DNA of 64,000 nucleotides. It comes from Bacteroidia bacterium. GTDB taxonomy: Bacteria; Bacteroidota; Bacteroidia; UKL13-3. Numbering within the stretch: position 1 is the stretch's first letter; every line of letters starts with the position of its first letter. Under the pieces are notes generated by a model. That model had not been told where the DNA came from. It searched no databases and saw only the letters and a list, made by a program, of their open reading frames with translations. This document shows positions 26,940 to 61,172 of the stretch, in pieces. The translations under genes were made by a program, and so were the position numbers. The stretch is from the NCBI GenBank assembly GCA_019695215.1, contig JAIBAK010000005.1:1-64000 (forward strand), in the 5' to 3' direction.

Positions 26940-28223
26940 TTAAGTGGTAAGGTAATTTTTAATAACCTGCATCAGTTGCCATATATCTTCGAATGAATTG
27001 TAAAGAGGTGCCGGTGCCATGCGTATCACATCGGGTTCGCGCCAGTCGGCAATCACTCCGTTTTGTGTGAGGTGGTCAAATAATTTTCTTCCGTCTTTTC
27101 CGGCCAGAATGGAAAGCTGTGCCCCGCGCTGTTCCGGGTCTTTAGGCGTAATCACATTTAACTTTTTTTCTTCAGGTAGTATTTGGTTCAGCTCGTTTAT
27201 CAGAAACTCGAGGTATCCTGTAAGTTTAACGCTTTTGGCGCGCAGGTTTTGCATTCCTGCTTCGTCAAAAATATCGAGCGAAGCTTTATGAAGTGCCATT
27301 GGAAAAATTTGCGCATTGCTAAGTTGCCATCCTTCGGCACCCCGCATGGGAATAAATCCTTTCTGCATTTGAAAACGGGTGTGTTCGTCATGTCCCCACC
27401 AGCCTGCAAACCGAGGCAATTCATTATTGGCGGCATGACGCTCATGAACAAACACACCGGAGGTACCACCGGGTCCGGAGTTAAGGTATTTATACGTACA
27501 CCACACCGCAAAATCCACGTCCCAATCGTGCAGCTGTAAATGTAAATTTCCGGCTGCGTGAGCGAGATCAAAACCTGCATTGGCTCCTGCCGCATGTGCT
27601 GCTTTGGTAATTGCCTGCATATCGTAAGCCTGACCGGTATAATAATTTACTCCGCCCATCATTACCAAAGCCAGTTCGTTTTTATGGTGTTCAATAGTGG
27701 CCAATATGTCCTCTGTGCGCAGGGTAAATTCACCTTTACGGGGTGTGAGTTCCACAATAGCTTCATCGGGATTTAAGCCGTGAAAGCGTACCTGTGTTTC
27801 CATGGCATACTGATCTGACGGAAATGCTCCGCCTTCCATAATAATTTTAAACCTATTTTTGACCGGTCGGTAAAAACTCACCATCATCAGGTGCAAGTTT
27901 ACGGTAAGATTATTCATCACTACTACTTCAATTGGTTTGGCTCCCACTACCCGTGCGGCCTTTTCCGTTAAAAATTTGTGGTAATGAAACCAGGGATTTT
28001 TCCCTTCAAAGTGTCCCTCTACACCATAGGTAGCCCAGTCATTAAGCTCCTGTTCTACGGCTGCCCTTGCAGTAACGGGTTGTAAACCCAATGAATTTCC
28101 CGTTAGGTAAATTGCATTTTTTCCGTTGTGCTGAGGAAATAAAAATTGGCTGCGAAAAACATGAAGGGCGTCATCCCTGTCGGCCTGCTGCGCGTATGGC
28201 AATGAATTCTGAAAATTGGTCAT
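26940..28223 (-). CDS. kynU: Kynureninase
   Basis: The 427-aa PLP enzyme cleaves 3-hydroxykynurenine to 3-hydroxyanthranilate and alanine. Visible features are LTGNSLGLQP, VDFAVWCTYKYLNSGPG with the PLP lysine in TYKYLN, and NAQIFPMALHKASLDIFDEAG. The start is set at 28223 (MTNFQNSLPYAQQ); a longer frame to 28310 lacks a plausible start and would run over the promoter. kmo follows 11 bp later. Its promoter carries an FNR-type dyad with the same geometry as the nor and nos promoters. Confidence 0.93.
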   Translation of the reverse strand: MTNFQNSLPYAQQADRDDALHVFRSQFLFPQHNGKNAIYLTGNSLGLQPVTARAAVEQELNDWATYGVEGHFEGKNPWFHYHKFLTEKAARVVGAKPIEVVVMNNLTVNLHLMMVSFYRPVKNRFKIIMEGGAFPSDQYAMETQVRFHGLNPDEAIVELTPRKGEFTLRTEDILATIEHHKNELALVMMGGVNYYTGQAYDMQAITKAAHAAGANAGFDLAHAAGNLHLQLHDWDVDFAVWCTYKYLNSGPGGTSGVFVHERHAANNELPRFAGWWGHDEHTRFQMQKGFIPMRGAEGWQLSNAQIFPMALHKASLDIFDEAGMQNLRAKSVKLTGYLEFLINELNQILPEEKKLNVITPKDPEQRGAQLSILAGKDGRKLFDHLTQNGVIADWREPDVIRMAPAPLYNSFEDIWQLMQVIKNYLTT

Positions 28224-28229
28224 GTCGGG

Positions 28230-28273
28230 CAAATTTAAGAGATTCCGGCAATGTACCTGATGATATTTATCAA
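28230..28273 (-). promoter_or_regulatory. kynU promoter with one FNR-type dyad
   Basis: On the minus strand, TAAATTTG (28237-28230) matches the -7 element and its last base lies six bases before the kynU ATG. The dyad ATGAT-ATTT-ATCAA (28260-28273) is centred 36.5 bp from that last base, the same distance as at norC, nos, mbnP and nadA. No second dyad is seen 22 bp further away. Confidence 0.6.
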
Positions 28274-48671: not shown

Positions 48672-48673
48672 TT
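48641..48673. terminator. Bidirectional terminator
   Basis: AGCCTCGC (48648-48655) pairs with GCGGGGCT (48660-48667) around the loop AACT. An A-run precedes it and a T-run follows. It can end the 49-aa gene on the plus strand and the di-heme peroxidase gene on the minus strand. Confidence 0.85.
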
Positions 48674-49715
48674 ATTTAGCCGAAATAAAAGAAGTATCAG
48701 TTAAGGTTTTGAGAAAGGCCACCAAACTCGCTTTTTCATAAGCCGTAAGTTGCAGTCCGCTTTCTTTACCCGGTTTAGTCATAATAGGATCGATGGTGCG
48801 GGAAAATTTAACGCCCGAATTATAAAACTCCACCACTTCTTCCAAGGTATTAAACCGGCCATCGTGCATGTAAGGAGCTGTTAACTCAATATTGCGAAGT
48901 GTGGGCGTGCTGAACATCCCCATATCGCTGGCAGCATGGGTAATCAGATTTCGTCCGGCATTTTGCCCCGTAAACTGATCATCGAGCCCGTTGTTGTGAT
49001 AAAGATTATCGGTGAAAAGCGGATAGCCATGACAATGAAAACAATCTCCCCGCTCAGAGAAAAACACATCCATCCCGTCACGCTCTTCCTGAGTAAGTGC
49101 GCCCCCTTTAAGCTGATACCTGTCTAATTTGGAGTCGGCCGAAATCAGAGTGCGTATGTATTGGACTAGGGCTTTGCAAATAGTCATTTTTAACTCTTCG
49201 TAGCTTAGGGTGTAAAAATTTGTTATCCCGAATGCCTTGTAAAAAAGTTGCGGATATAAAGGATGATGAGATAACCTGTAAAAAAGCGTATCGGCATTGG
49301 TATTAAAAAATTGTGGTTCAAAATCACCCATAGGTAGTGTTTCGAGTTTAGTAACCGAACCGTTCCAGTTGTAGTCGGGATTAAAAGCAAGATTTAAGTG
49401 CGGGGGGATGCTTATTTTATCTCCTGTAAGAGTAATGTAATACGGAGAAGAGAATGACTTACCCCGATTGTGACAGGATGAACAACTAAGTCCGTTTGAT
49501 GACAGAATTGCATCGGAATACAACCGTTTACCTAAATCCACGCCTTCATTCGTAAGCGGATTATCGGAAGAAATATATGGCTGCGGAAAACCCTGTGGCA
49601 CCTGAAGTATATACGGAGTAGGTTGATAAATTCCCGAATCAGGATCGGAAGGACTTTCTTTTTGCCTGCATTGAATCATGAGCACGATAAGCAGAAGTAC
49701 CACAATGTATCTCAT
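48672..49715 (-). CDS. MauG/MbnH-like di-haem cytochrome c peroxidase family protein
   Basis: The 347-aa lipoprotein (lipobox LMIQC, Cys 16) has two c-type haem motifs, CSSCH (78-82) and CFHCH (225-229), and the C-terminal FSTPTLRNIELTAPYMHDGR motif of the family. It lies 3 bp after mbnP. In methanobactin operons the MauG-like partner MbnH converts a tryptophan of MbnP to kynurenine, creating a copper site. The same pairing is likely here, though no methanobactin genes are present. General peroxidase activity is the alternative. Confidence 0.85.
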   Translation of the reverse strand: MRYIVVLLLIVLMIQCRQKESPSDPDSGIYQPTPYILQVPQGFPQPYISSDNPLTNEGVDLGKRLYSDAILSSNGLSCSSCHNRGKSFSSPYYITLTGDKISIPPHLNLAFNPDYNWNGSVTKLETLPMGDFEPQFFNTNADTLFYRLSHHPLYPQLFYKAFGITNFYTLSYEELKMTICKALVQYIRTLISADSKLDRYQLKGGALTQEERDGMDVFFSERGDCFHCHGYPLFTDNLYHNNGLDDQFTGQNAGRNLITHAASDMGMFSTPTLRNIELTAPYMHDGRFNTLEEVVEFYNSGVKFSRTIDPIMTKPGKESGLQLTAYEKASLVAFLKTLTDTSFISAK

Positions 49716-50475: not shown

Positions 50476-50519
50476 CAAAGTTAGGATATTAATAGCACGC
50501 TATAGTTGACAATCATCAA
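50476..50519 (-). promoter_or_regulatory. mbnP promoter with FNR-type dyad
   Basis: On the minus strand the -7 element is TAACTTTG (50483-50476). The dyad TTGAC-AATC-ATCAA (50506-50519) is centred 36.5 bp from its last base. A second dyad at 50528-50541 lies exactly 22 bp further and also serves the divergent nadA promoter. Confidence 0.7.
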
Positions 50520-50527
50520 CTTCATTA

Positions 50528-50571
50528 CTGATTAAGATCATGGTATTGCATTGCAGGTCGGGGGATCTTTG
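50528..50571 (+). promoter_or_regulatory. nadA promoter with FNR-type dyad, near-leaderless
   Basis: The dyad CTGAT-TAAG-ATCAT (50528-50541) is centred 36.5 bp before the last base of GATCTTTG (50564-50571), a -7 element with one mismatch to TAnnTTTG. The nadA ATG follows five bases later at 50577. The mbnP and nadA promoters thus share a 22-bp-spaced dyad pair, one dyad in the fixed position for each direction. Confidence 0.55.
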
Positions 50572-50576
50572 CACCC

Positions 50577-51560
50577 ATGATACAGGAACCGATGATATCG
50601 GAGAAAGAAATGATTTTCCGAATCAATAAACTAAAGAAAGAAAAGAATGCTGTTATTCTCTCGCATTACTATATGAGCCCCGATTTGCAATTGAAAGAAA
50701 CAGCAGGTGGTATTGCCGACTTTGTAGGAGACTCATTAGGGCTAAGTGTAGAAGCATCGAAAACAACGGCAGATCATATAGTGTTTTGCGGAGTATATTT
50801 TATGGCGGAAACGGCCAAAATTTTAAGTCCTGCCAAACATGTTTACATACCGGACAAAGAGGCCGGATGTTCGCTGGCATCAAGTATTACCGCAGCAGAT
50901 GTTTACGCTTTAAAGGCCAAATATCCGGGTGTACCTGTTGTAGCTTACATTAATACCTATGCCGAAACTAAAGCCGCCTGCGATGTATGCTGCACTTCAC
51001 GAAATGCGTTAGCCATCATTCGTTCGCTGGATGCATCTAAAATAATTTTTATTCCTGATTTATATATGGGACAAAATCTGGCCAGGCAGGTAAAAGAAGA
51101 AACCGGGAAAGAACTTATTCTTTGGGACGGCAAATGTGAGGTTCATGAGCAATTTACTTCAGATATGGCCAAAGGGTTGCGCATGCAATATCCCAAATCA
51201 GAGTTTTTGCTGCACTGGGAAGTACCCGGAACTACGGTTTCCGATTCATTAAACAATGCTGGCGGGGTACTCGGAAGCACCAATGATATCATCCGCTATG
51301 TGGGAGAAAGTTCCTGCAACAGTTTTATTCTCGCTTCGGAATGCGATTTGGGTTCAACCCTTAAAGGCATGTATCAGGAAAAAGAATTCATCACTCCATG
51401 TATCAAATGCCCGCATATGAAAAAAATATCTATGCTTAAAACACTGGAAATTCTGGAACGTATAGGGGAAGATAAATTGGATGATTTTGAAGTGAATTTA
51501 AGCGATGATTTGATTCAGAAAGCTTACCTCCCCATAAAACGAATGATGGAGTTTACCTGA
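50577..51560 (+). CDS. nadA: Quinolinate synthase
   Basis: The 327-aa [4Fe-4S] enzyme condenses iminoaspartate and dihydroxyacetone phosphate to quinolinate. It shows ILSHYYMSPDLQ, DFVGDSLGLSVEA, cysteines in KEAGCSLASS, SECDLGSTLKGM and TPCIKCPHMKK (Fe-S ligands), and CDVCCTSRNA. The length is typical. nadB follows 1 bp after its stop. The [4Fe-4S] cluster makes it oxygen-sensitive, which fits FNR-type control. Confidence 0.96.
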   Translation: MIQEPMISEKEMIFRINKLKKEKNAVILSHYYMSPDLQLKETAGGIADFVGDSLGLSVEASKTTADHIVFCGVYFMAETAKILSPAKHVYIPDKEAGCSLASSITAADVYALKAKYPGVPVVAYINTYAETKAACDVCCTSRNALAIIRSLDASKIIFIPDLYMGQNLARQVKEETGKELILWDGKCEVHEQFTSDMAKGLRMQYPKSEFLLHWEVPGTTVSDSLNNAGGVLGSTNDIIRYVGESSCNSFILASECDLGSTLKGMYQEKEFITPCIKCPHMKKISMLKTLEILERIGEDKLDDFEVNLSDDLIQKAYLPIKRMMEFT

Positions 51561-54126: not shown

Positions 54127-55923
54127 TTAAGCCGTTACCATTCCTGCCAACTGTTGCTCCAGCTCGGCAAACTCCCTTTTCATTTGGTTGATGAAAGACT
54201 CCTTTTCTTCCTGCATTTTATCAAGGAGGTTATTATAGTAGCAAATGCCCGAAAGTAAATTGCTGCGAAACGTATTAATATAATCCTCCTTTTTACTGCT
54301 GATTGCCTGAATATTTTTATTGATTTCCTTTTTCAGGTAATCAATATAAATGCGCAATTCATTTACAAAAACATGAGACCTTGGTACGTTGTTTAGCACA
54401 CTCCCGCGTCCGTAAATATGCCCTGCCATTTGAGCCAGTGTAAACACTCCCGAAAAATAAGTCAGATTAGGTCCCGGGCAAATAGTTACGGCATTAAGTT
54501 TATGTGGATGCGGAATATGTTTTTCGATAAATACGGATGTACTTAAACCTTCACATAAACAATCTTTCTCTGTTACCAGATCAATTTGTTGCTGTTTGGT
54601 TTGCTCATCTGCTTCGCTGGCTTTTATTTCTTTTATTTTTAAATGCTGGTACTCGCGCGATGCCACACAAATTGGCTTCTCGGTAAACTCCGTATTAAAA
54701 GAGAGGAGTTTTAAATAACACGGACTACCGGCTCTGTGTTTTTCAATGCGTGATTTACGCTGCACTTCTGAACTGCTTTTCCTGAAATTATTAAACGGAA
54801 CACCCAACGGAGAAGCATTACTCAAATAATAATCATCAGGTTTGGCCGAAGCTAAAGCAGTGAGGGTTTCGTAATCTACGTTGGTAACTTCCGGTACTAA
54901 TAAAAACGGACTCCCCCAGCCAATGCTGTCCATTTTGTAATAACTGAGAAAAAACTGCTGCTCATTAAACGTGCCCACTCCGCCCTGAACCGTAATGCTG
55001 AGTTTTGGTACGGAAGCAAACACATCGCGTCCTTTTTCTTTAAGCGTTTGATTACATAATTCGAATAATGTTTTTGTCAGCTCCTCCCTCTTAGCTTTAA
55101 ACTCTTCCATCACAGGCCCGAGCAACAATCCATCGGTGGCAAACGCGTGCCCCCCGCAATTCAAGCCCGATTCAATTCTGAATTCAGAAACCCAGAGTCC
55201 CTTTTTTGCGAGAAATTTTCCCTGAATAAGGGCCGAACGATAATCACTTACCTTAATGGTAATTCGTTTTTTGAGATTCCCGTTTTTATCGGGGAAAAAA
55301 TCATCAAACGTTTCGCAATAGCTATACAACCTCGGATTTAACCCTGCAGAAAATACCACTGAAGAGGATACATTACTTAAGGCAAAGCCGCGCAAAGCAG
55401 CAAGGGCATCATTATATTCAACCGGAAGAGGTTCGCCTGATGGATCATAATTTGTTTTATCCACCTTGGTCATAATATTTATATCAATATCTCCTGCTGC
55501 CATAGCAGCCCTTAATTCGTCCTGCAATTTTAACTGCTCGGCTCCCGAAGCATCCTGCATCTTTAAATACTTTTGCTTTAACGGAGAATCTTCGGGAAGC
55601 AATTCAAAATATTTTACAATTTCGGCTCCTTCTTCAAATCGTTCGGTCCTGATTATGTCTAATTGATTTTTTACAATTAAATCAAGCACATTAAGGTACT
55701 CGGTGATGCGTTTTGCCCGGTAGTCATGTTCTGATTTGGTAATATGCCGGAAGGGAAGCTGAAGCGATTCGCAATAGTACTTACGCATTTTTTCTACCAA
55801 TTCGTCCTCTATCACGGAAACTACCGAAGATATGCCGAAACGAGCTACCTTAACCGGTGTATCAACGGTAAACGAAAGACCCATAACCGGAATGTGAAAA
55901 GAGTGAACGGGGGAAATACTCAT
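54127..55923 (-). CDS. Unknown 598-aa protein, TIM-barrel-like, in the nor operon
   Basis: I cannot name the family. Features suggest a flavin TIM-barrel enzyme related to nitronate monooxygenase or PfaD: VMGLSFTVDTPVKVARFGISSVVS near the N-terminus, ITVQGGVGTFNEQQF (about 310-324), and a possible cofactor or Fe-S motif EKDCLCEGLSTS (C455, C457) with TICPGPNLTYFSG (C482). GLNCGGHAFATDG (253-265) is another conserved-looking glycine-cysteine segment. The C-terminus (about 525-590) is coiled coil. It sits between norB (57 bp upstream) and queD (10 bp downstream). The ATG at 55923 (MSISPVHSFHIP) is chosen over 55971. Confidence 0.7.
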   Translation of the reverse strand: MSISPVHSFHIPVMGLSFTVDTPVKVARFGISSVVSVIEDELVEKMRKYYCESLQLPFRHITKSEHDYRAKRITEYLNVLDLIVKNQLDIIRTERFEEGAEIVKYFELLPEDSPLKQKYLKMQDASGAEQLKLQDELRAAMAAGDIDINIMTKVDKTNYDPSGEPLPVEYNDALAALRGFALSNVSSSVVFSAGLNPRLYSYCETFDDFFPDKNGNLKKRITIKVSDYRSALIQGKFLAKKGLWVSEFRIESGLNCGGHAFATDGLLLGPVMEEFKAKREELTKTLFELCNQTLKEKGRDVFASVPKLSITVQGGVGTFNEQQFFLSYYKMDSIGWGSPFLLVPEVTNVDYETLTALASAKPDDYYLSNASPLGVPFNNFRKSSSEVQRKSRIEKHRAGSPCYLKLLSFNTEFTEKPICVASREYQHLKIKEIKASEADEQTKQQQIDLVTEKDCLCEGLSTSVFIEKHIPHPHKLNAVTICPGPNLTYFSGVFTLAQMAGHIYGRGSVLNNVPRSHVFVNELRIYIDYLKKEINKNIQAISSKKEDYINTFRSNLLSGICYYNNLLDKMQEEKESFINQMKREFAELEQQLAGMVTA

Positions 55924-55980
55924 AATGTATTTAATTTTTGTTTTTATTAATATTGGATGAAATATTGACAAATTGATTTC

Positions 55981-57357
55981 TCATCCTTCTTTCATTAAGG
56001 AACTAAAGCCATATCCCGGAACTTTTTTCCTGGTGTAGCACAAAATAAAAGTACGCAAAATAACCACGCAGGTACCGGTTATTGCTATCAGCAATCCAAT
56101 ACCCGCACAAAACATCGCTATAAAATAAGGCCTGAAACTTAGCATCATTTGCTGAAATGAACTTTGAACCGGATTCATTTGCCAAATTCCTTTAAGCACA
56201 CCAACCACCAGCAGAGAAAGCAGCATTGTTCCTAAACAAATATTTAAAATGGTGAGCCACCTTCTTAAAACAGGATACGAATCCGTTTCATTGCATGATC
56301 CTTTAAGAAACTCCGAAGAAACTCCCAATAGAATGAGTGTATTAATCCCGATGGTTGTTCCCATAGCATGAGCAACGGTAACATGTGTACCATGGGTATA
56401 AATATTAATTGCCGGAATTGACATAAGCAATGCCAGAAATAAATTTAACAATACCCAGTGATCTGATGAATTTAAAAAATCAAAAGAAATTCTCCTGGCG
56501 GGTTTGCCTGCCGATGCATTTGTTTTTTTCCAGAGAAAAATAATCCGGAGAAAGATGATCCATTCCGTCATACTTACCGCATACGAGATAATTCTGACAT
56601 AGGGAGCCGTAGGCAGGGTATAGATATGATGTCCCCAGTTAAACATGAGATTAAATAACCCGAGGAAATACATGGCAAAGGAAATTCCGGAACGGGCGGT
56701 TTGTTTATCTCCCGAAATTCTTTCCATCAGGTAAAATGCAAGGCCATACACTAATTGATTCCATGAACCTACCAACGAGCCGTTCGACTTCCACTGAATG
56801 GTGAGGTCCTTCACAGCATCTTTATTGATGAATGGGAAAACCCAGAGGTAATTTTCACAAAAGGTTATAAGAAAGCAAACAATTCCGGTGAGCCACATCC
56901 AGTGGTATACACTCCATTGGGGTTTTGATGCATAAACCAAAAGGTAACTGATTAAAAAAAACAACCAGCCTGCAGCAATAAAACCGGCATACTGCGGAGG
57001 AAACTCCCAATACTCTCTTCCTCCAAAAATACCACGATAATAGGAGGTGAAAATTATGACCATTGCCACAAACCAGATAACGTAATGTGCCAGAGCCATT
57101 GAGTGAATGAGGTTATTTATTTTCACATCGCGGTAAGAACGGTACACTCCTCCGCTTGCTGCCATAAGAATCCAGAATACAACTGATGTAACATGCAGCG
57201 GCCGCAACTGCGGGAACCCCAAATTGTTTTTTAAGAAATCCGGTGCGATGTAGTAAACCGATGCGAGCGAACCATAAATAACAGCCCCAACCAACATCAA
57301 GAGTGCGGTGACCAGAAATAAGCGATCGGCAAAAAAAGGAGTTGATTTACTATTCAT
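55981..57357 (-). CDS. norB: NorB-like nitric-oxide reductase large subunit, non-canonical active site
   Basis: The 458-aa haem-copper-oxidase-family protein has about 12 helices. It shows LRPLHVTSVV (H55, haem b), GREYWEFPP (111-120), NWGHHIYTLP (H243 and H244, FeB) and YTHGTHVTVAHAM (H330, haem b3). In canonical NorB the third FeB ligand His and an FeB Glu lie in helix VI as HLWVE; here the aligned segment reads WNQLVYG (199-205), and no His exists between residues 152 and 243. The HGH pair that gives H347 and H349 (Pseudomonas numbering) reads HAM (330-332), so the second haem b His is Met. NorC is normal. The start at 57357 overlaps norC by 8 bases. It may belong to a variant NOR family. 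Confidence 0.85.
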   Translation of the reverse strand: MNSKSTPFFADRLFLVTALLMLVGAVIYGSLASVYYIAPDFLKNNLGFPQLRPLHVTSVVFWILMAASGGVYRSYRDVKINNLIHSMALAHYVIWFVAMVIIFTSYYRGIFGGREYWEFPPQYAGFIAAGWLFFLISYLLVYASKPQWSVYHWMWLTGIVCFLITFCENYLWVFPFINKDAVKDLTIQWKSNGSLVGSWNQLVYGLAFYLMERISGDKQTARSGISFAMYFLGLFNLMFNWGHHIYTLPTAPYVRIISYAVSMTEWIIFLRIIFLWKKTNASAGKPARRISFDFLNSSDHWVLLNLFLALLMSIPAINIYTHGTHVTVAHAMGTTIGINTLILLGVSSEFLKGSCNETDSYPVLRRWLTILNICLGTMLLSLLVVGVLKGIWQMNPVQSSFQQMMLSFRPYFIAMFCAGIGLLIAITGTCVVILRTFILCYTRKKVPGYGFSSLMKEG

Positions 57358-57769
57358 CTTTACACTTGATATCGCCACTCACGGTAGCCTTAAAATTTCT
57401 CGGATCGGCCTTTCCCGATTGATCCATGCAACGCAAAAACTCGGTCACTTTTTCAATTTCTGTTTCAGTCATTTTGAAGGCAGGCATTGTTTTCGTTCCG
57501 TTTTTTATCATAATCCCGATATATCCGGTTCCGTTATCTTTAGTTGAATATACATTGGTGAGATCGGGTCCCAGGTATCCGCCAAGACCATAAAACTGGT
57601 GACACGACTGGCAATTATTCTGCTGCCAGATTATTTTCCCTTCAAGGGCTGCATCGCCCAGCAGGGCTGTTTTTTTTAGCGAATGATTACTTGTGTACAG
57701 ATGAAAACTGTACATCACAAAAGAACACACTAAAAAAAGCAGGATACCGATTTTAACTGTAAACCTCAT
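57350..57769 (-). CDS. norC: NorC-like cytochrome c subunit of nitric-oxide reductase
   Basis: The 139-aa protein has an N-terminal membrane anchor (about 6-24) and one c-type haem motif NCQSCHQFYGLGGYLGPDLTN (CQSCH about 53-57) with a Met in KTMPAFKMTETE as distal ligand. This is the canonical NorC layout. The gene starts 12 bases after the -7 element of a promoter bearing two FNR-type dyads. norB overlaps its end. Confidence 0.93.
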   Translation of the reverse strand: MRFTVKIGILLFLVCSFVMYSFHLYTSNHSLKKTALLGDAALEGKIIWQQNNCQSCHQFYGLGGYLGPDLTNVYSTKDNGTGYIGIMIKNGTKTMPAFKMTETEIEKVTEFLRCMDQSGKADPRNFKATVSGDIKCKDE

Positions 57770-57777
57770 TCAGAGGT

Positions 57778-57843
57778 CAAAATTATCTGTAGTTGTACGG
57801 ATAAAAATTGATTAACGTCATTAATATATCTGATAGAAATCAG
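57778..57843 (-). promoter_or_regulatory. norC promoter with two FNR-type dyads
   Basis: On the minus strand the -7 element is TAATTTTG (57785-57778). The proximal dyad TTGAT-TAAC-GTCAT (57808-57821) is centred 36.5 bp from its last base. The distal dyad CTGAT-AGAA-ATCAG (57830-57843) lies exactly 22 bp further and overlaps the stop of the regulator gene. Transcription would start about five bases after the -7 element, placing the dyads near -41.5 and -63.5. Confidence 0.75.
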
Positions 57844-58544
57844 TCCTTGAGGTTGGCAATATCCAGCAATTGTTTGGTATTGGTAATTCTGATAAGTTTT
57901 TTGTCAAGATCGATTACCCCTGCTTCGTTCCATTCCCTCAGGCACCTCACCACGGTTTCGGTGGCCATACCCGTAATATTGGCAATATCTTCCCTGTTTA
58001 GCACCACATTGATAAAACCCCTATCGTTTACTCCAAAAGTATCTTTCAGCAACAACAGAGACTCGGCAAGACGCTCTTTGCTTGTTTTATGCAGCAGGTC
58101 AACATTTTTCTTCTCTGCCGTTTTTAATTCGCGGGCAAAGTTTTCCATTATTTTAAGCGACAGGTGAATATTCTTATTCAGTAATTCAAAAATATAGTGT
58201 TTTGGTATCAGGCATATTTGCGAATCTTCAATTGCTTCGGCTGCAGCGCGGTATTGTTCCCCGGCCAATAAAGAGCGATAGCCAATAATGTCTCCGTCTT
58301 TTGCCAGCCTTAATATTTGAATATTTCCTTCATTGGTTGTTTTAAATACCTTTACCTTACCACGATGTACACAATATAAACCGGGTGGCTCACTTTCTTC
58401 ATAAAAAATTAACTGCCCTTTTTTTACGTGAAATGAAGACTTGTAATTATTCAATTGCTCAATTTCTTCGCGGGTCAGGGTGCAAAACACAGAGAGTCCG
58501 AGGGTTTGGCAACTTGTACAATCTAATTTACTATTCAATGCCAT
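57840..58544 (-). CDS. FNR-type transcriptional regulator with four cysteines
   Basis: The 234-aa Crp/Fnr protein has C9, C12 and C21 at the N-terminus and C111 in DSQICLIP. In E. coli FNR the [4Fe-4S] ligands are C20, C23, C29 and C122, the last in MVCEIPF; the match is good except for the spacing of the third. The sensor core (about 35-130) is followed by an HTH (about 184-205). The recognition helix reads ETVVR (196-200) where FNR has ETISR. It lies between norC and the nos operon and is the best candidate to bind the dyads found at five promoters. NO sensing is equally possible. Confidence 0.9.
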   Translation of the reverse strand: MALNSKLDCTSCQTLGLSVFCTLTREEIEQLNNYKSSFHVKKGQLIFYEESEPPGLYCVHRGKVKVFKTTNEGNIQILRLAKDGDIIGYRSLLAGEQYRAAAEAIEDSQICLIPKHYIFELLNKNIHLSLKIMENFARELKTAEKKNVDLLHKTSKERLAESLLLLKDTFGVNDRGFINVVLNREDIANITGMATETVVRCLREWNEAGVIDLDKKLIRITNTKQLLDIANLKD

Positions 58545-58582
58545 TCGGTAAATCTAAGGGTTTTATCCCAAAACAAAAAAAA

Positions 58583-58648
58583 CTGATAAAAATCACGCTC
58601 AACTCTGATTCATATCAAAAAGGGCCCTTTTGGCCGGGGCTACTTTTG
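58583..58648 (+). promoter_or_regulatory. nos operon promoter with two FNR-type dyads
   Basis: The distal dyad is CTGAT-AAAA-ATCAC (58583-58596) and the proximal dyad is CTGAT-TCAT-ATCAA (58605-58618), exactly 22 bp apart. The -7 element TACTTTTG (58641-58648) ends 36.5 bp from the proximal centre. No -33 TTG is present, as expected for an activated promoter. The first gene starts at 58695. Confidence 0.75.
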
Positions 58649-58694: not shown

Positions 58695-59162
58695 ATGACA
58701 AAAATTTACAGAAAAGCAGTATCAGTAACTGCAGTATTAGCTTTAGCTTTCGTATTCAGTAATTGTGGCTCATCAGACAAACCTGCTGAGCAATCGTCCG
58801 CCACACCTGCCGCCCCGGCCGATAACGGAGAAGGGGTTGGAAACTTTAACGGAAAAGAAGTTGCTCCTTTTGATGCAGCTTTAGCAGAAAAAGGGAAAAC
58901 CCTGTTTGAAGCCAAATGTTCAGCCTGCCATAAAATTACCGGAGACAAAGTGGTAGGTCCCGGACTTAAGGGCGTAACAGAACGCAGAAAACCACAATGG
59001 ATTCTGAACATGATTACCAATCCTGTGGAGATGACCCAAAAAGACCCGACTGCGCAAGCGTTACTTGCCGAACACCTTACTCAAATGACCAATCAGAATG
59101 TGGCAGAAGATGAAGCATTGTCCATTCTGAATTACCTGCGCCAAAATGATGGAGCCAAATAA
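58695..59162 (+). CDS. Cytochrome c lipoprotein of the nos operon
   Basis: The 155-aa lipoprotein (lipobox FSNC, Cys 24) carries a single haem motif KCSACHKITG (CSACH 75-79) and a distal Met (about 112-120 region, EMTQKDP). It probably delivers electrons to NosZ. Clade II nos clusters often include such a c-type cytochrome. It is 36 bp ahead of nosZ. Confidence 0.88.
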   Translation: MTKIYRKAVSVTAVLALAFVFSNCGSSDKPAEQSSATPAAPADNGEGVGNFNGKEVAPFDAALAEKGKTLFEAKCSACHKITGDKVVGPGLKGVTERRKPQWILNMITNPVEMTQKDPTAQALLAEHLTQMTNQNVAEDEALSILNYLRQNDGAK

Positions 59163-59198: not shown

Positions 59199-61172
59199 AT
59201 GAAAATAATAGTTAAAACAGCAATCAGGATAAGCCTTATGGTTTTAGTGATTGCAGGCTTTTATAGTTGCAAGCCAAAAAAAGCAACCAATGTGGTACAA
59301 GGCGATGCAGCCAGCAAAGTATACGTTGCTCCGGGTAAACTGGATGAAGTATATATGTTTGCTTCCGGAGGATTTAGCGGACAGGTTGCCGTGTATGGTA
59401 TTCCTTCCGGAAGACTTCTTCGTCAGATACCGGTATTTTCTGTTAATCCCGAAAATGCATGGGGTTATTCAGAAGAAACAAAACCTATGCTCAACACCAC
59501 CAAAGGGATGATTCCGTGGGATGACAGTCACCACCCGGTTCTTTCAAAAACCGGTGGCAATGACGATGGCAGATGGCTCTTTATTAATGCCAACAACACC
59601 CCACGTATTGCCCGTATTGACCTTACCACCTTTAAAACAGCCGAAATTATTGAGCTGCCAAATACCGGTGGTAACCACGCTTCTCCTTATTGCACCGAAA
59701 ATACCGAGTACGTAGTAGGAGCTTCCCGCTTTAGTGTACCTCCGGATGAAACAGAAGTTGCCATTAACACCTACAAACAAAATTTTAAAGGAGTGGTAAA
59801 CTTTATTAAAGTAGATAAAGAAAGCGGACACATGAATCTGGCATTCCAACTGGATGTTCCGGCTATTGATTATGATTTGGCTCGTGCCGGAAAAGGAGTA
59901 TCACACGGTTGGCTGTTTTTCTCAAGCTATAATTCTGAACAGGCCAATACGCTGCTTGAAGTAAATGCCTCGCAAAAAGACAAGGACTTTATTATGGCCG
60001 TAAACTGGAAAAAAGCCGAAGAATACCTGGCACAGGGAAAAGGGGTAAAAAAACCAGCCAACTACTACCATAATTTATACGATGAGTCAAAACATATGGC
60101 TACATCCGAGCTGATGAAAGAAGTTATGACGCTGGATGCACGAGCACTGAAAGATATTTGTTACTATATGCCATGCCCTAAATCTCCTCACGGATGTGAT
60201 GTGAGCCCTACTGGCGAATACATTGTTGCTTCAGGAAAACTGGCTGCAACCATTCCGGTTTTTTCTTATAAGAAAATGATGGCTGCCATTGAAGGAAAGC
60301 AATTCGAAGGAGAGTTTGACGGCATCAGCGTGTTAAAATACGATGCAGTGCTTGCAGGCGAAGTTCAAAAACCGGGTTTAGGACCGCTGCACACCGAATT
60401 TGATCAGAACGGTTTTGCTTATACTTCATTCTTCGTTTCATCTGAAGTAGTAAAATGGAAAGTTGAAACCCGTGAAATAGTTGACCGTATCCCTACCTAC
60501 TATTCTATTGGCCACCTTTGCGCTGTTCAGGGTGATTCAAAACAACCTTTCGGAAAATACTTAGTTGCTTTGAACAAAATTACCAAAGACCGTTACCTCC
60601 CTACCGGACCTGAACTTTGCCAGTCGGCACAGCTGATTGATATTACAGGTGAAAAAATGAAATTGTTACTTGACTTCCCTACTATTGGCGAACCACACTA
60701 CGCCCAAATGATTCAGGCAGATTTGCTGATTAAAAACCAGCGTAAAGTGTACAAACTGGAAGAAAATAAACACCCGTATTTTGCAGGCAATGAAAAAGAG
60801 GCAAAAGTTGAACGTAAAGGCAACGAGGTTCACGTGTATATTACAGCCATCCGCTCACACTTTACTCCTGATAATATTGAAGGTGTAAAAGTAGGCGATG
60901 ATGTTTATTTCCATGTTACCAACCTTGAACAGGATTGGGACGTTCCGCACGGTTTCGCAGTAAAAGGTGCAGGCAATTCTGAACTATTGATTATGCCTGG
61001 CGAAACACAAACCCTGAAGTGGACTCCGAAAACACCTGGTGTATATCCTATGTATTGTACCGACTTCTGTTCGGCACTCCATCAGGAAATGCAGGGTTAT
61101 GTAAGGGTATCGCCCGCAGGTTCATCTACTCCAATGAGCTTCTCGACCGGTAATACGGCAGCAGCTAAATAG
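59199..61172 (+). CDS. nosZ: Nitrous-oxide reductase, Sec-dependent clade II
   Basis: The 657-aa enzyme reduces N2O to N2. It has a Sec-type lipoprotein-like signal (FYSC, Cys 24) and no twin-arginine, typical of clade II. CuZ histidines are seen in DDSHHP, GGNHASPY, SPHGCDVS, GPLHTEFD, SIGHLCAV and EPHYAQM. The CuA site is at the C-terminus: YCTDFCSALHQEM (about 625). The seven-bladed propeller and cupredoxin domains are complete. Copper supply genes nosL, nosD and nosF follow. Confidence 0.97.
   Translation: MKIIVKTAIRISLMVLVIAGFYSCKPKKATNVVQGDAASKVYVAPGKLDEVYMFASGGFSGQVAVYGIPSGRLLRQIPVFSVNPENAWGYSEETKPMLNTTKGMIPWDDSHHPVLSKTGGNDDGRWLFINANNTPRIARIDLTTFKTAEIIELPNTGGNHASPYCTENTEYVVGASRFSVPPDETEVAINTYKQNFKGVVNFIKVDKESGHMNLAFQLDVPAIDYDLARAGKGVSHGWLFFSSYNSEQANTLLEVNASQKDKDFIMAVNWKKAEEYLAQGKGVKKPANYYHNLYDESKHMATSELMKEVMTLDARALKDICYYMPCPKSPHGCDVSPTGEYIVASGKLAATIPVFSYKKMMAAIEGKQFEGEFDGISVLKYDAVLAGEVQKPGLGPLHTEFDQNGFAYTSFFVSSEVVKWKVETREIVDRIPTYYSIGHLCAVQGDSKQPFGKYLVALNKITKDRYLPTGPELCQSAQLIDITGEKMKLLLDFPTIGEPHYAQMIQADLLIKNQRKVYKLEENKHPYFAGNEKEAKVERKGNEVHVYITAIRSHFTPDNIEGVKVGDDVYFHVTNLEQDWDVPHGFAVKGAGNSELLIMPGETQTLKWTPKTPGVYPMYCTDFCSALHQEMQGYVRVSPAGSSTPMSFSTGNTAAAK

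What the first reader, a model, noticed from the sequence alone, without database searches (positions are those of the whole stretch)
57778..58648. Identical tandem-dyad promoters for norC and the nos operon
Both divergently oriented promoters around the regulator gene carry two 14-bp dyads of the form NTGAY-N4-RTCAN. In each promoter the two dyads are exactly 22 bp apart, centre to centre, which is about two helical turns. In each the proximal dyad is centred exactly 36.5 bp from the last base of a TAnnTTTG -7 element. With a start about five bases after the element, the dyads would lie at about -41.5 and -63.5, the class II and extended FNR positions. The -33 TTG is missing from both, as expected for promoters that need an activator. 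TAnnTTTG and FNR-type dyads are known separately; I do not know a description of this exact combination.
Basis: partly seen in the sequence, partly recalled or inferred. Interest (0 to 1): 0.85.

Follow-up and report, generated by a model that had tools for sequence, protein, structure and literature searches.

The report
Paired-site promoters for anaerobic respiration genes
In this bacterium the promoters of the nitric oxide and nitrous oxide reductase genes carry the same pair of 12-base symmetric sites at exactly the same distances from the promoter box, a layout found in 66 of 296 sampled genomes of its class, and the pair likely binds two touching copies of an FNR-type activator that would switch these genes on when oxygen is scarce.

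Summary
Two TGAY-N4-RTCA dyads, 22 bp apart, lie 23 nt upstream of a TAnnTTTG box before norC and before the nos operon. It is neither chance nor private to this locus: with box distance free over 31 values, 108 of 133 hits in 296 class genomes fall on 23 nt; dyad spacing peaks at 22 bp without a peak one helical turn further. None of 186 sampled genomes of other classes of the phylum has the module. Starts mapped in a Flavobacterium put the box at -12 to -5, hence dyads at -41.5 and -63.5. I read this as a class II FNR-type promoter with two cooperating dimers, often near a Crp/Fnr gene, serving denitrification, cbb3-assembly and stress genes. Tandem dyads are individually weaker than the single dyads that other lineages place at the same position. 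In the window's family most nos promoters have one dyad, not two, so there only the distance to the box is widely kept. No binding or start site was measured here.

The parts
57778..57785 (-). -7 element TAATTTTG of the norC promoter; inferred start about 57773
   Evidence: sequence; box position relative to starts from PMC9723704
57809..57820 (-). proximal dyad of norC (inferred -41.5), TGACGTTAATCA on the minus strand
   Evidence: changed to TGACGATAGTCA, still matching the motif, in same-genus L241
57831..57842 (-). distal dyad of norC (inferred -63.5), overlaps the stop codon of the regulator gene; 12 of 12 identical in L241
58584..58595 (+). distal dyad of the nos promoter (inferred -63.5); also 40 bp upstream of the regulator start
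58606..58617 (+). proximal dyad of the nos promoter (inferred -41.5)
58641..58648 (+). -7 element TACTTTTG of the nos promoter; inferred start about 58653
   Evidence: sequence; 8 of 8 identical in L241
57840..58544 (-). FNR-type regulator gene, 234 aa, likely but not proven to bind the dyads
   Evidence: Pfam cNMP_binding and HTH_Crp_2; NCBIfam Fnr subfamily below cut-off; nearest solved structures Crp/Fnr family and FNR type regulators
50507..50518 (.). third pair, dyad 1: proximal for the MbnP gene, distal for nadA
50529..50540 (.). third pair, dyad 2: proximal for nadA, distal for the MbnP gene
50476..50483 (-). -7 element TAACTTTG of the MbnP gene, 23 nt from dyad 1
   Evidence: TAACTTCG (one consensus T lost) in L241
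50564..50571 (+). -7 element GATCTTTG (5 of 6) of nadA, 23 nt from dyad 2
   Evidence: identical in L241
57350..57769 (-). norC-like cytochrome c
   Evidence: Pfam Cytochrome_CBB3/Cytochrom_C
55981..57378 (-). norB-like subunit
   Evidence: COX1; nitric-oxide reductase subunit B 4xyd E 4.1e-5, 3o0r E 6.9e-5
58695..59162 (+). cytochrome c, first gene of the nos operon
59199..61172 (+). nosZ, Sec-dependent type (clade II, recalled equivalence)
   Evidence: TIGR04246, 932 bits
49719..50456 (-). MbnP gene, followed by an MbnH/MauG-like di-haem gene at 48672-49715
   Evidence: PF20243; TIGR04039 below cut-off
50577..51560 (+). nadA, quinolinate synthase
   Evidence: TIGR00550 above cut-off
28230..28272 (-). 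single dyad 28261-28272 with TAAATTTG 28237-28230 at gap 23 in front of kynureninase (26940-28223); may be chance

Best explanation
The norC and nos promoters share one architecture, two TGAY-N4-RTCA dyads 22 bp apart placed 23 nt upstream of a TAnnTTTG box, and are predicted to be class II FNR-type promoters on which two abutting regulator dimers likely bind cooperatively at -41.5 and -63.5 and activate transcription. Shown by sequence: the geometry, its recurrence over the genome and the class, the lack of a -33 TTTG, the weaker consensus of each dyad in a pair, and the frequent neighbourhood of Crp/Fnr genes. Inferred: that the proximal dimer touches sigma and alpha as in class II FNR/CRP promoters; that the distal dimer, sitting exactly one 22-bp footprint upstream, holds the proximal one by direct contact and displaces or lifts the alpha C-terminal domains; that the window's own regulator (57840-58544), or one of its two Cys-bearing paralogues in the genome, is the factor; and that the signal is loss of oxygen (or NO). 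Where boxes stand on both sides, as between the MbnP gene and nadA, each dimer would be proximal for one promoter and distal for the other.
For: Own genome: 8 exact pairs at 22 bp, 7 of 8 with a box matching at least 5 of 6 positions at gap 23-24 on at least one side, 5 of 8 with a perfect box. Class: 133 hits in 71 of 296 genomes with gap free over 8-38: 108 at 23, 8 at 24, 6 at 22, 11 elsewhere. Pair spacing free over 12-42 in 149 genomes; 106 places in the printed part of the list (43 of 106 positive genomes): 47 at 22, 13 at 23, every other spacing at most 5, and only 5 in all at 32-34, so abutment rather than mere helical phase. 48 class-wide 22-bp pairs: perfect box at exactly gap 23 for 14, at 22 or 24 for none, at least 5 of 6 at 22-24 for 36; 20 control pairs with other spacings (20 of 46 listed): 3 and 4. 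Regulator genes: 24 of 67 promoters (21 of 62 outside this genome) within 10 kb of a listed HTH_Crp_2 match, very roughly 0.7 expected. Same-genus footprint L241: spacers 11-17 of 23 identical, dyads 10-12 of 12, boxes 7-8 of 8, no indel. nos promoters in 98 loci: 25 tandem, 37 single at the same position, 36 neither; 0 of 1960 shuffles give either. Site strength: tandem proximal 15.1 bits (n=96), distal 15.7 (n=95), single 19.6 (n=49); flanking A...T in 18 of 96, 18 of 95 and 35 of 49. -33 TTTG 0 of 45 against 17 of 144 generic boxes. Targets: of 37 first genes 9 cytochrome c, 6 Usp, 4 Rrf2, 4 FixS/CcoS, plus NadA, CBS, OsmC, COX2, an anaerobic/microaerobic set.
Against: No start site, binding or expression data for this organism. 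In the window's family only 2 of 19 scorable nos promoters are tandem; 12 have one dyad and 5 neither, and same-genus G308 has one dyad at gap 24. 36 of 98 nos promoters score as neither form. One of 8 own-genome pairs (C8:32977) has no box on either side. Four HTH_Crp_2 proteins in the genome could compete for the sites. The regulator's N-terminal cysteines are spaced C-X2-C-X8-C, not C-X2-C-X5-C as in E. coli FNR. Tandem and single forms go with different regulator types, so the strength difference may reflect different proteins rather than cooperativity; the 4 single sites of the window's own genome do not show the strong flanks (1 of 4). The 10 bp between the dyads are 9-10 of 10 identical in L241, and the norC distal dyad overlaps coding sequence, so short-range conservation is not confined to the dyads. 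225 of 296 class genomes lack a perfect module.
Confidence: 0.75

Rival explanations
1. Only the proximal dyad activates; the distal dyad is the proximal site of a present or lost divergent promoter, and the 22-bp spacing is the packing limit of two back-to-back class II complexes.
For: Symmetric modules with perfect boxes on both sides exist: 7 of 57 pairs in the loci fetched by then, 4 more with one perfect and one imperfect box, and 4 exact cases in the class search; the midpoint between dyads is -52.5 for both promoters.
Against: Of 48 class-wide pairs none has two perfect boxes and only 4 have two boxes of at least 5 of 6, while the distal dyad is as conserved as the proximal one and often the better match: of 34 rows with gap 23 and 22-bp spacing in which both dyads match at least 6 of 8, 12 have both perfect, 15 only the distal, 7 only the proximal (31 of the 34 are distinct).
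Confidence: 0.15
2. The sites belong to another Crp/Fnr paralogue of the genome (C26:24610 or C32:929) and not to the regulator between the two promoters.
For: Three Cys-bearing FNR-type proteins and one Crp-type protein without such cysteines are encoded; one-mismatch pairs lie 1 and 3 kb from the C32 and C26 genes; recognition helices differ only in part.
Against: The window regulator lies between two such promoters, and regulators close to tandem promoters are common elsewhere; its helix TETVVR resembles those of REC-FNR (TESLIR) and of L089 (TETTIR) beside tandem promoters, whereas C26 and C32 have RETLIR and RETATR.
Confidence: 0.3
3. The dyads are repressor sites: the regulator blocks the promoters and release gives expression.
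For: FNR-type proteins can repress (recalled); the nos distal dyad is 40 bp from the start codon of the regulator gene, which could be repressed.
Against: Fixed -41.5 position, missing -33 TTTG and an often imperfect box are features of activated promoters; the sites do not overlap the box or the inferred start.
Confidence: 0.07
4. Chance or base composition.
For: Single dyads are only mildly enriched in the window.
Against: Zero or few control counts and 0 of 1960 shuffles.
Confidence: 0.01

Closest known systems
Class II FNR-activated promoters of Escherichia coli (PMC3688515, passages seen)
   Same: Dyad of the FNR type centred at -41.5; 19 of 23 activated promoters with known starts lie at -41.5 +/- 4; missing or poor -35 (the last point recalled).
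   Different: 89% of E. coli peaks in the direct regulon hold one site and very few sites are known at -61.5 or further; here the pair at -41.5/-63.5 recurs over a class, the first T of TTGAT is not required, and the core element is TAnnTTTG.
Bacteroidota sigma-A promoters, TAnnTTTG at -7 (PMC9723704 and PMC12632263, passages seen)
   Same: The box, and its place at -12 to -5.
   Different: No -33 TTTG; the box often lacks its first T; a dyad fixed 23 nt upstream.
Tandem CRP/FNR (class III) promoters, recalled
   Same: One class II dimer plus an upstream dimer.
   Different: The upstream dimer abuts at 22 bp instead of lying further upstream, and the spacing is nearly fixed over a class.
Bidirectional promoters of E. 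coli (PMC12825309, passages seen)
   Same: Divergent transcription from one symmetric stretch in the symmetric subset.
   Different: There symmetry lies in the -10 element itself and an activator for one direction tends to repress the other; here the starts would be about 106 bp apart and each direction would have its own dimer.
HcpR2 regulons of Bacteroides (PMC1274295, passages seen)
   Same: Crp/Fnr-family control of nitrogen-oxide genes in the phylum.
   Different: Motif GTAACnnnnGTTAC and, in most Bacteroides, only hcp as target; no tandem geometry for them in the passages seen.

Membership tests
Class II FNR/CRP-type promoter | Activator dyad centred at -41.5 | tested here: met
   36.5 bp from the last base of the box, box at -12 to -5 in a mapped relative; the start in this organism is inferred, not mapped
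Class II FNR/CRP-type promoter | Weak or missing upstream core element | tested here: met
   -33 TTTG 0 of 45 against 17 of 144 (p 0.014), TTG 4 of 45 against 32 of 144 (p 0.05)
Class II FNR/CRP-type promoter | Transcription depends on the activator | not testable with these tools
   needs expression data
FNR operator TTGAT-N4-ATCAA (recalled) | Leading T and trailing A of the dyad | tested here: not met
   commonest base before the core is A (0.32) or C (0.33), after it T (0.61, 0.47) in tandem proximal and distal sites; motif is NTGAY-N4-RTCAN
FNR protein family | cNMP-binding plus Crp-type HTH | tested here: met
FNR protein family | Four cysteine ligands as in E. coli FNR (C20, C23, C29, C122; numbering recalled) | tested here: inconclusive
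   C9, C12, C21 and C111 present; C111 aligns with the C of VCEIP in E. coli FNR, but N-terminal spacing is C-X2-C-X8-C and only two of the three N-terminal ligands align
FNR protein family | NCBIfam Fnr model above its cut-off | tested here: not met
   NF008365 100.4 bits against cut-off 228
FNR protein family | Oxygen-labile 4Fe-4S cluster | not testable with these tools
   needs purified protein

The most novel reading that the evidence does not exclude
The class Bacteroidia has its own activator-promoter code: either one strong dyad at -41.5 or two weak, touching dyads at -41.5 and -63.5, both locked 23 nt upstream of TAnnTTTG. Different sensors, cysteine-bearing FNR proteins or FNR proteins fused to a response-regulator receiver domain, plug into the same paired promoters. 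In its symmetric form one pair of dimers drives two back-to-back promoters, each dimer being proximal for one and distal for the other.
Probability: 0.5. Interest if true: 0.78.

Novelty: new variant of a known kind. Interest (0 to 1): 0.66.

Why it matters
Activator-dependent promoters of Bacteroidota are little described in what I could search. A fixed geometry would let anyone read candidate anaerobic regulons straight from sequence in this class, including the control of Sec-type N2O reductase, a sink for a greenhouse gas. It also gives a natural comparison of one strong against two weak abutting activator sites at one promoter position, on an RNA polymerase with an unusual core promoter, and a test of where the alpha C-terminal domains go when their usual place at about -63 is taken.

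Tried and rejected
Chance, composition and simple helical phasing were rejected. A structured element in the nos spacer (AAAAGGGCCCTTTT, a perfect palindrome) was considered and dropped: it is not kept in L241 although spacer length is. A search for regulator relatives in viral contigs found none. One search used a wrong gap (28-31 instead of 27) and is not used. Papers: searches listed no paper that I could recognise as describing tandem FNR-type sites combined with TAnnTTTG; most subscription journals are not in that library. Passages of PMC6955866 and PMC12040651 (Porphyromonas Crp/Fnr proteins) gave no such geometry. PMC3590769 is not held. For the other papers listed only the listing was seen. 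A Gammaproteobacteria control for the pair spacing could not be run.

Full report
What was claimed and whether it is there. Both are there to the base. A third pair lies at 50507-50540: on the minus strand TAACTTTG stands exactly 23 nt from the near dyad, in front of an MbnP gene (PF20243) followed by an MbnH/MauG-like di-haem gene; on the plus strand GATCTTTG stands exactly 23 nt from the other dyad, in front of nadA. So one pair has boxes on both sides.

The genes. 57840-58544 is a Crp/Fnr protein. 57350-57769 is a cytochrome c and 55981-57378 resembles solved nitric oxide reductase subunit B, so norC and norB are fair names. 59199-61172 is Sec-dependent NosZ (TIGR04246), followed, after one gene without Pfam match, by NosL- and NosD-like genes.

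More than chance, in this genome. Exact pairs at 22 bp: 8 in 3.3 Mb, none for the reversed pattern. With spacing left free from 12 to 42 bp (pattern starting TGAT), 9 places: 7 at 22, one at 21, one at 23, none elsewhere, control 0. With the dyad-box gap free from 8 to 38 nt, 11 of 24 hits lie at 23 and 3 at 24; the control has 6 hits. Of the 8 pairs, 7 have a box of at least 5 of 6 at gap 23-24, 5 a perfect one; the eighth, on contig 8, has none. First genes in this genome include a universal stress protein and a CBS protein, a metallo-beta-lactamase/rhodanese protein, a planctomycete-type cytochrome c (distal dyad 7 of 8), and, with a degenerate distal dyad (6 of 8), a fasciclin protein and a beta-eliminating lyase.

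More than chance, in the class. In 149 genomes of the class 106 have at least one pair in the 12-42 bp range. The printed list is incomplete; its 106 distinct places come from 43 genomes and give 47 at 22 bp (31 genomes), 13 at 23 bp (7 genomes) and at most 5 at any other spacing. There is no second peak one helical turn further (32-34 bp: 5 in all). I fetched all 47 listed places at 22 bp, which hold 48 pairs, all 13 at 23 bp and 20 of the other 46. A perfect box stands at exactly 23 nt for 14 of 48, at 22 or 24 for none; at least 5 of 6 at 22-24 for 36 of 48. For 23-bp pairs 4 and 9 of 13; for the other 20 pairs 3 and 4. In the reverse test, pair fixed at 22 bp and box gap free from 8 to 38, 133 hits in 71 of 296 genomes (47 of 166 genera) fall at 23 (108), 24 (8), 22 (6) and 11 elsewhere; the reversed control hits 4 times, all in one genome. 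Counted by hand from the list, 66 genomes, this one included, have gap 23 and 68 have gap 22-24. In a phylum-wide sample 11 of 61 genomes of the class and 0 of 186 genomes of other classes have the module; 18 of its 20 places are at 23 nt, one at 24, one at 22.

Position relative to the start. In Flavobacterium psychrophilum, with mapped starts, TAnnTTTG occupies -12 to -5 (PMC9723704, passage). Counting from there the proximal dyad is at -41.5 and the distal at -63.5. -41.5 is the class II position of E. coli FNR, where 19 of 23 activated promoters with known starts lie within 4 nt of it, 89% of peaks in the direct regulon have one site, and very few sites are known at -61.5 or beyond (PMC3688515, passages). 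The start sites of this organism are inferred, not mapped. For nadA the inferred start is one base before the first ATG; a second in-frame ATG follows 15 bases later.

Conservation at short range. A same-genus genome (G300, NosZ 96% identical) has the cluster (L241). Its norC, nos, nadA and MbnP promoters keep the exact geometry: spacers are identical at 17, 11, 15 and 13 of 23 positions, dyads at 10 to 12 of 12, boxes at 7 or 8 of 8, without insertion or deletion; the norC proximal dyad changed at two positions and still fits the motif, while the MbnP box lost one consensus T. The 10 bp between the dyads are also 9-10 of 10 identical, and the norC distal dyad overlaps the end of the regulator gene, so this footprint shows a conserved block and a free spacer rather than the dyads alone.

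Conservation at longer range, including results against a simple story. I scored the promoter of the first nos gene in 100 loci, 98 long enough: 25 tandem, 37 with one dyad at the same position, 36 neither; 0 of 1960 shuffles give either. Three of the family loci repeat a locus of the first set in whole or in part (L244/L046, L248/L062, L252/L092; all single). In the window's own family, 19 scorable loci: 2 tandem, 12 single, 5 neither; a second same-genus genome (G308, NosZ 72%) has a single dyad at gap 24. So the 36.5 to 37.5-bp rule is the widely kept part, and the second dyad comes and goes at this gene. Ten of the 36 carry, as their best-scoring site, a lopsided variant, TGAYT-N2-ACGCA, 23 nt from a box-like sequence, 7 of them TAATCTTG; scanning all 100 loci for this variant 20-26 nt upstream of TAnn[TC]TTG gave 13 hits, 11 at 23 nt and 2 at 24.

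One strong or two weak. Tandem proximal dyads carry 15.1 bits over 20 positions (n=96), tandem distal 15.7 (n=95), single dyads 19.6 (n=49); proximal and single cores are perfect by construction. A before and T after the core occur together in 35 of 49 singles, 18 of 96 proximals and 18 of 95 distals (p 1e-9 for single against proximal). The distal site is thus no decayed relic. This fits cooperative binding of two weak sites, but lineage and regulator type also differ, and the 4 single sites of the window's own genome lack the strong flanks (1 of 4).

Which protein. 24 of 67 class promoters (21 of 62 outside this genome) lie within 10 kb of a listed HTH_Crp_2 match, about 0.7 expected with a rough genome size and a truncated list; six outside this genome are within 250 bp, centre to centre. 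Two kinds of regulator sit beside tandem promoters: cysteine-bearing FNR-type proteins like the window's, and proteins with a receiver domain in front of cNMP_binding and HTH_Crp_2 (L057; others by length). Among the NosZ loci with a tblastn-detected Crp/Fnr gene, 9 of 11 with either kind are tandem against 2 of 29 with a short Crp-like protein (p 1e-5, not corrected for descent; L089 counts on both sides; sorting by length and cysteines). The window genome has four HTH_Crp_2 proteins, three with N-terminal cysteines. The window regulator has C9, C12, C21 and C111; alignment with E. coli FNR pairs C111 with its fourth ligand, but the N-terminal spacing differs. I favour an iron-sulphur oxygen sensor, with NO as a possible second signal, but this is inference.

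Core promoter. A TTTG 18-22 nt upstream of the box occurs in 17 of 144 generic boxes before genes and 0 of 45 dyad-associated ones (p 0.014); TTG 32 of 144 and 4 of 45 (p 0.05). Of the 26 imperfect boxes at gap 22-24 beside the 48 class-wide pairs, 13 lack the first T.

Targets. Perfect tandem modules in fetched loci: 53 distinct. For 12 no open frame was found, and 4 doubtful frames were left out; the other 37 first genes include 9 cytochrome c, 6 Usp, 4 Rrf2, 4 FixS/CcoS, and one each of NadA, CBS, OsmC, COX2, MbnP, cytochrome P450, a PAS kinase and others (eight single assignments). The NosZ loci were chosen for nosZ, so cytochrome c and Rrf2 are over-represented; Usp and FixS come mainly from loci chosen by the promoter pattern alone. 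This is the flavour of an FNR/ANR/FixK regulon (recalled).

Symmetric form. Of 57 pairs at 22 bp in the loci fetched up to (at least 15 of 16 positions), 7 have perfect boxes on both sides and 4 more one perfect and one imperfect, including the window's nadA pair; 4 exact cases appear in the class search. Of the 48 class-wide pairs none has two perfect boxes, so this form is a minority. Starts would be 106 bp apart, so each polymerase would have its own proximal dimer. In nos loci the partner is an Rrf2 regulator gene.

Verdict. I file it as a new variant of class II FNR-type promoters. Searches of the open-access library listed no description of it, which does not exclude one in journals not held.

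Noticed in passing
window 54127-55971, minus strand: Third gene of the norC-norB cluster, a 614-aa protein without Pfam or NCBIfam match; 7999 relatives scored (a cap), and among the 120 listed every name given is 'hypothetical' or 'uncharacterized'. Predicted fold (pLDDT 77) resembles PfaD/FabK enoyl reductases and 2-nitropropane dioxygenase (E 2e-6 to 9e-4, TM 0.3-0.5). By eye, relatives stand behind a pair in L158 and a single dyad in L092.
   Followed up: partly
L047, L051, L054, L065, L099, L102, L103, L105 upstream of the first nos gene: A lopsided dyad TGAYT-N2-ACGCA 23 nt upstream of TAATCTTG: same position, one half site changed; 11 of 13 hits of the variant in 100 loci lie at exactly 23 nt.
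   Followed up: partly
L057:16350-17456 and eight other NosZ loci: Response-regulator receiver domain fused to a Crp/Fnr protein (domains checked for L057; others by length and start), beside tandem-dyad nos promoters in 7 of 9 loci.
   Followed up: partly
window 50507-50571 and 28230-28272; L048 4738-4813: NAD-synthesis genes under these promoters: nadA in two lineages (tandem), kynureninase in the window (single dyad), suggesting that NAD supply may be tied to oxygen or NO.
   Followed up: no
L136, pair at 2001: Divergent haem genes: glutamyl-tRNA reductase and, by eye, ferrochelatase flank a 22-bp pair without a recognisable box.
   Followed up: no
L019 4155-4203 (contig 8 of the genome): The 201-aa Crp-type gene without N-terminal cysteines, followed by rhodanese-like genes (by eye), has its own single dyad 24 nt from TATTTTTG.
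   Followed up: no
window 58618-58631, between the nos proximal dyad and its box: AAAAGGGCCCTTTT palindrome, not conserved in same-genus L241.
   Followed up: yes
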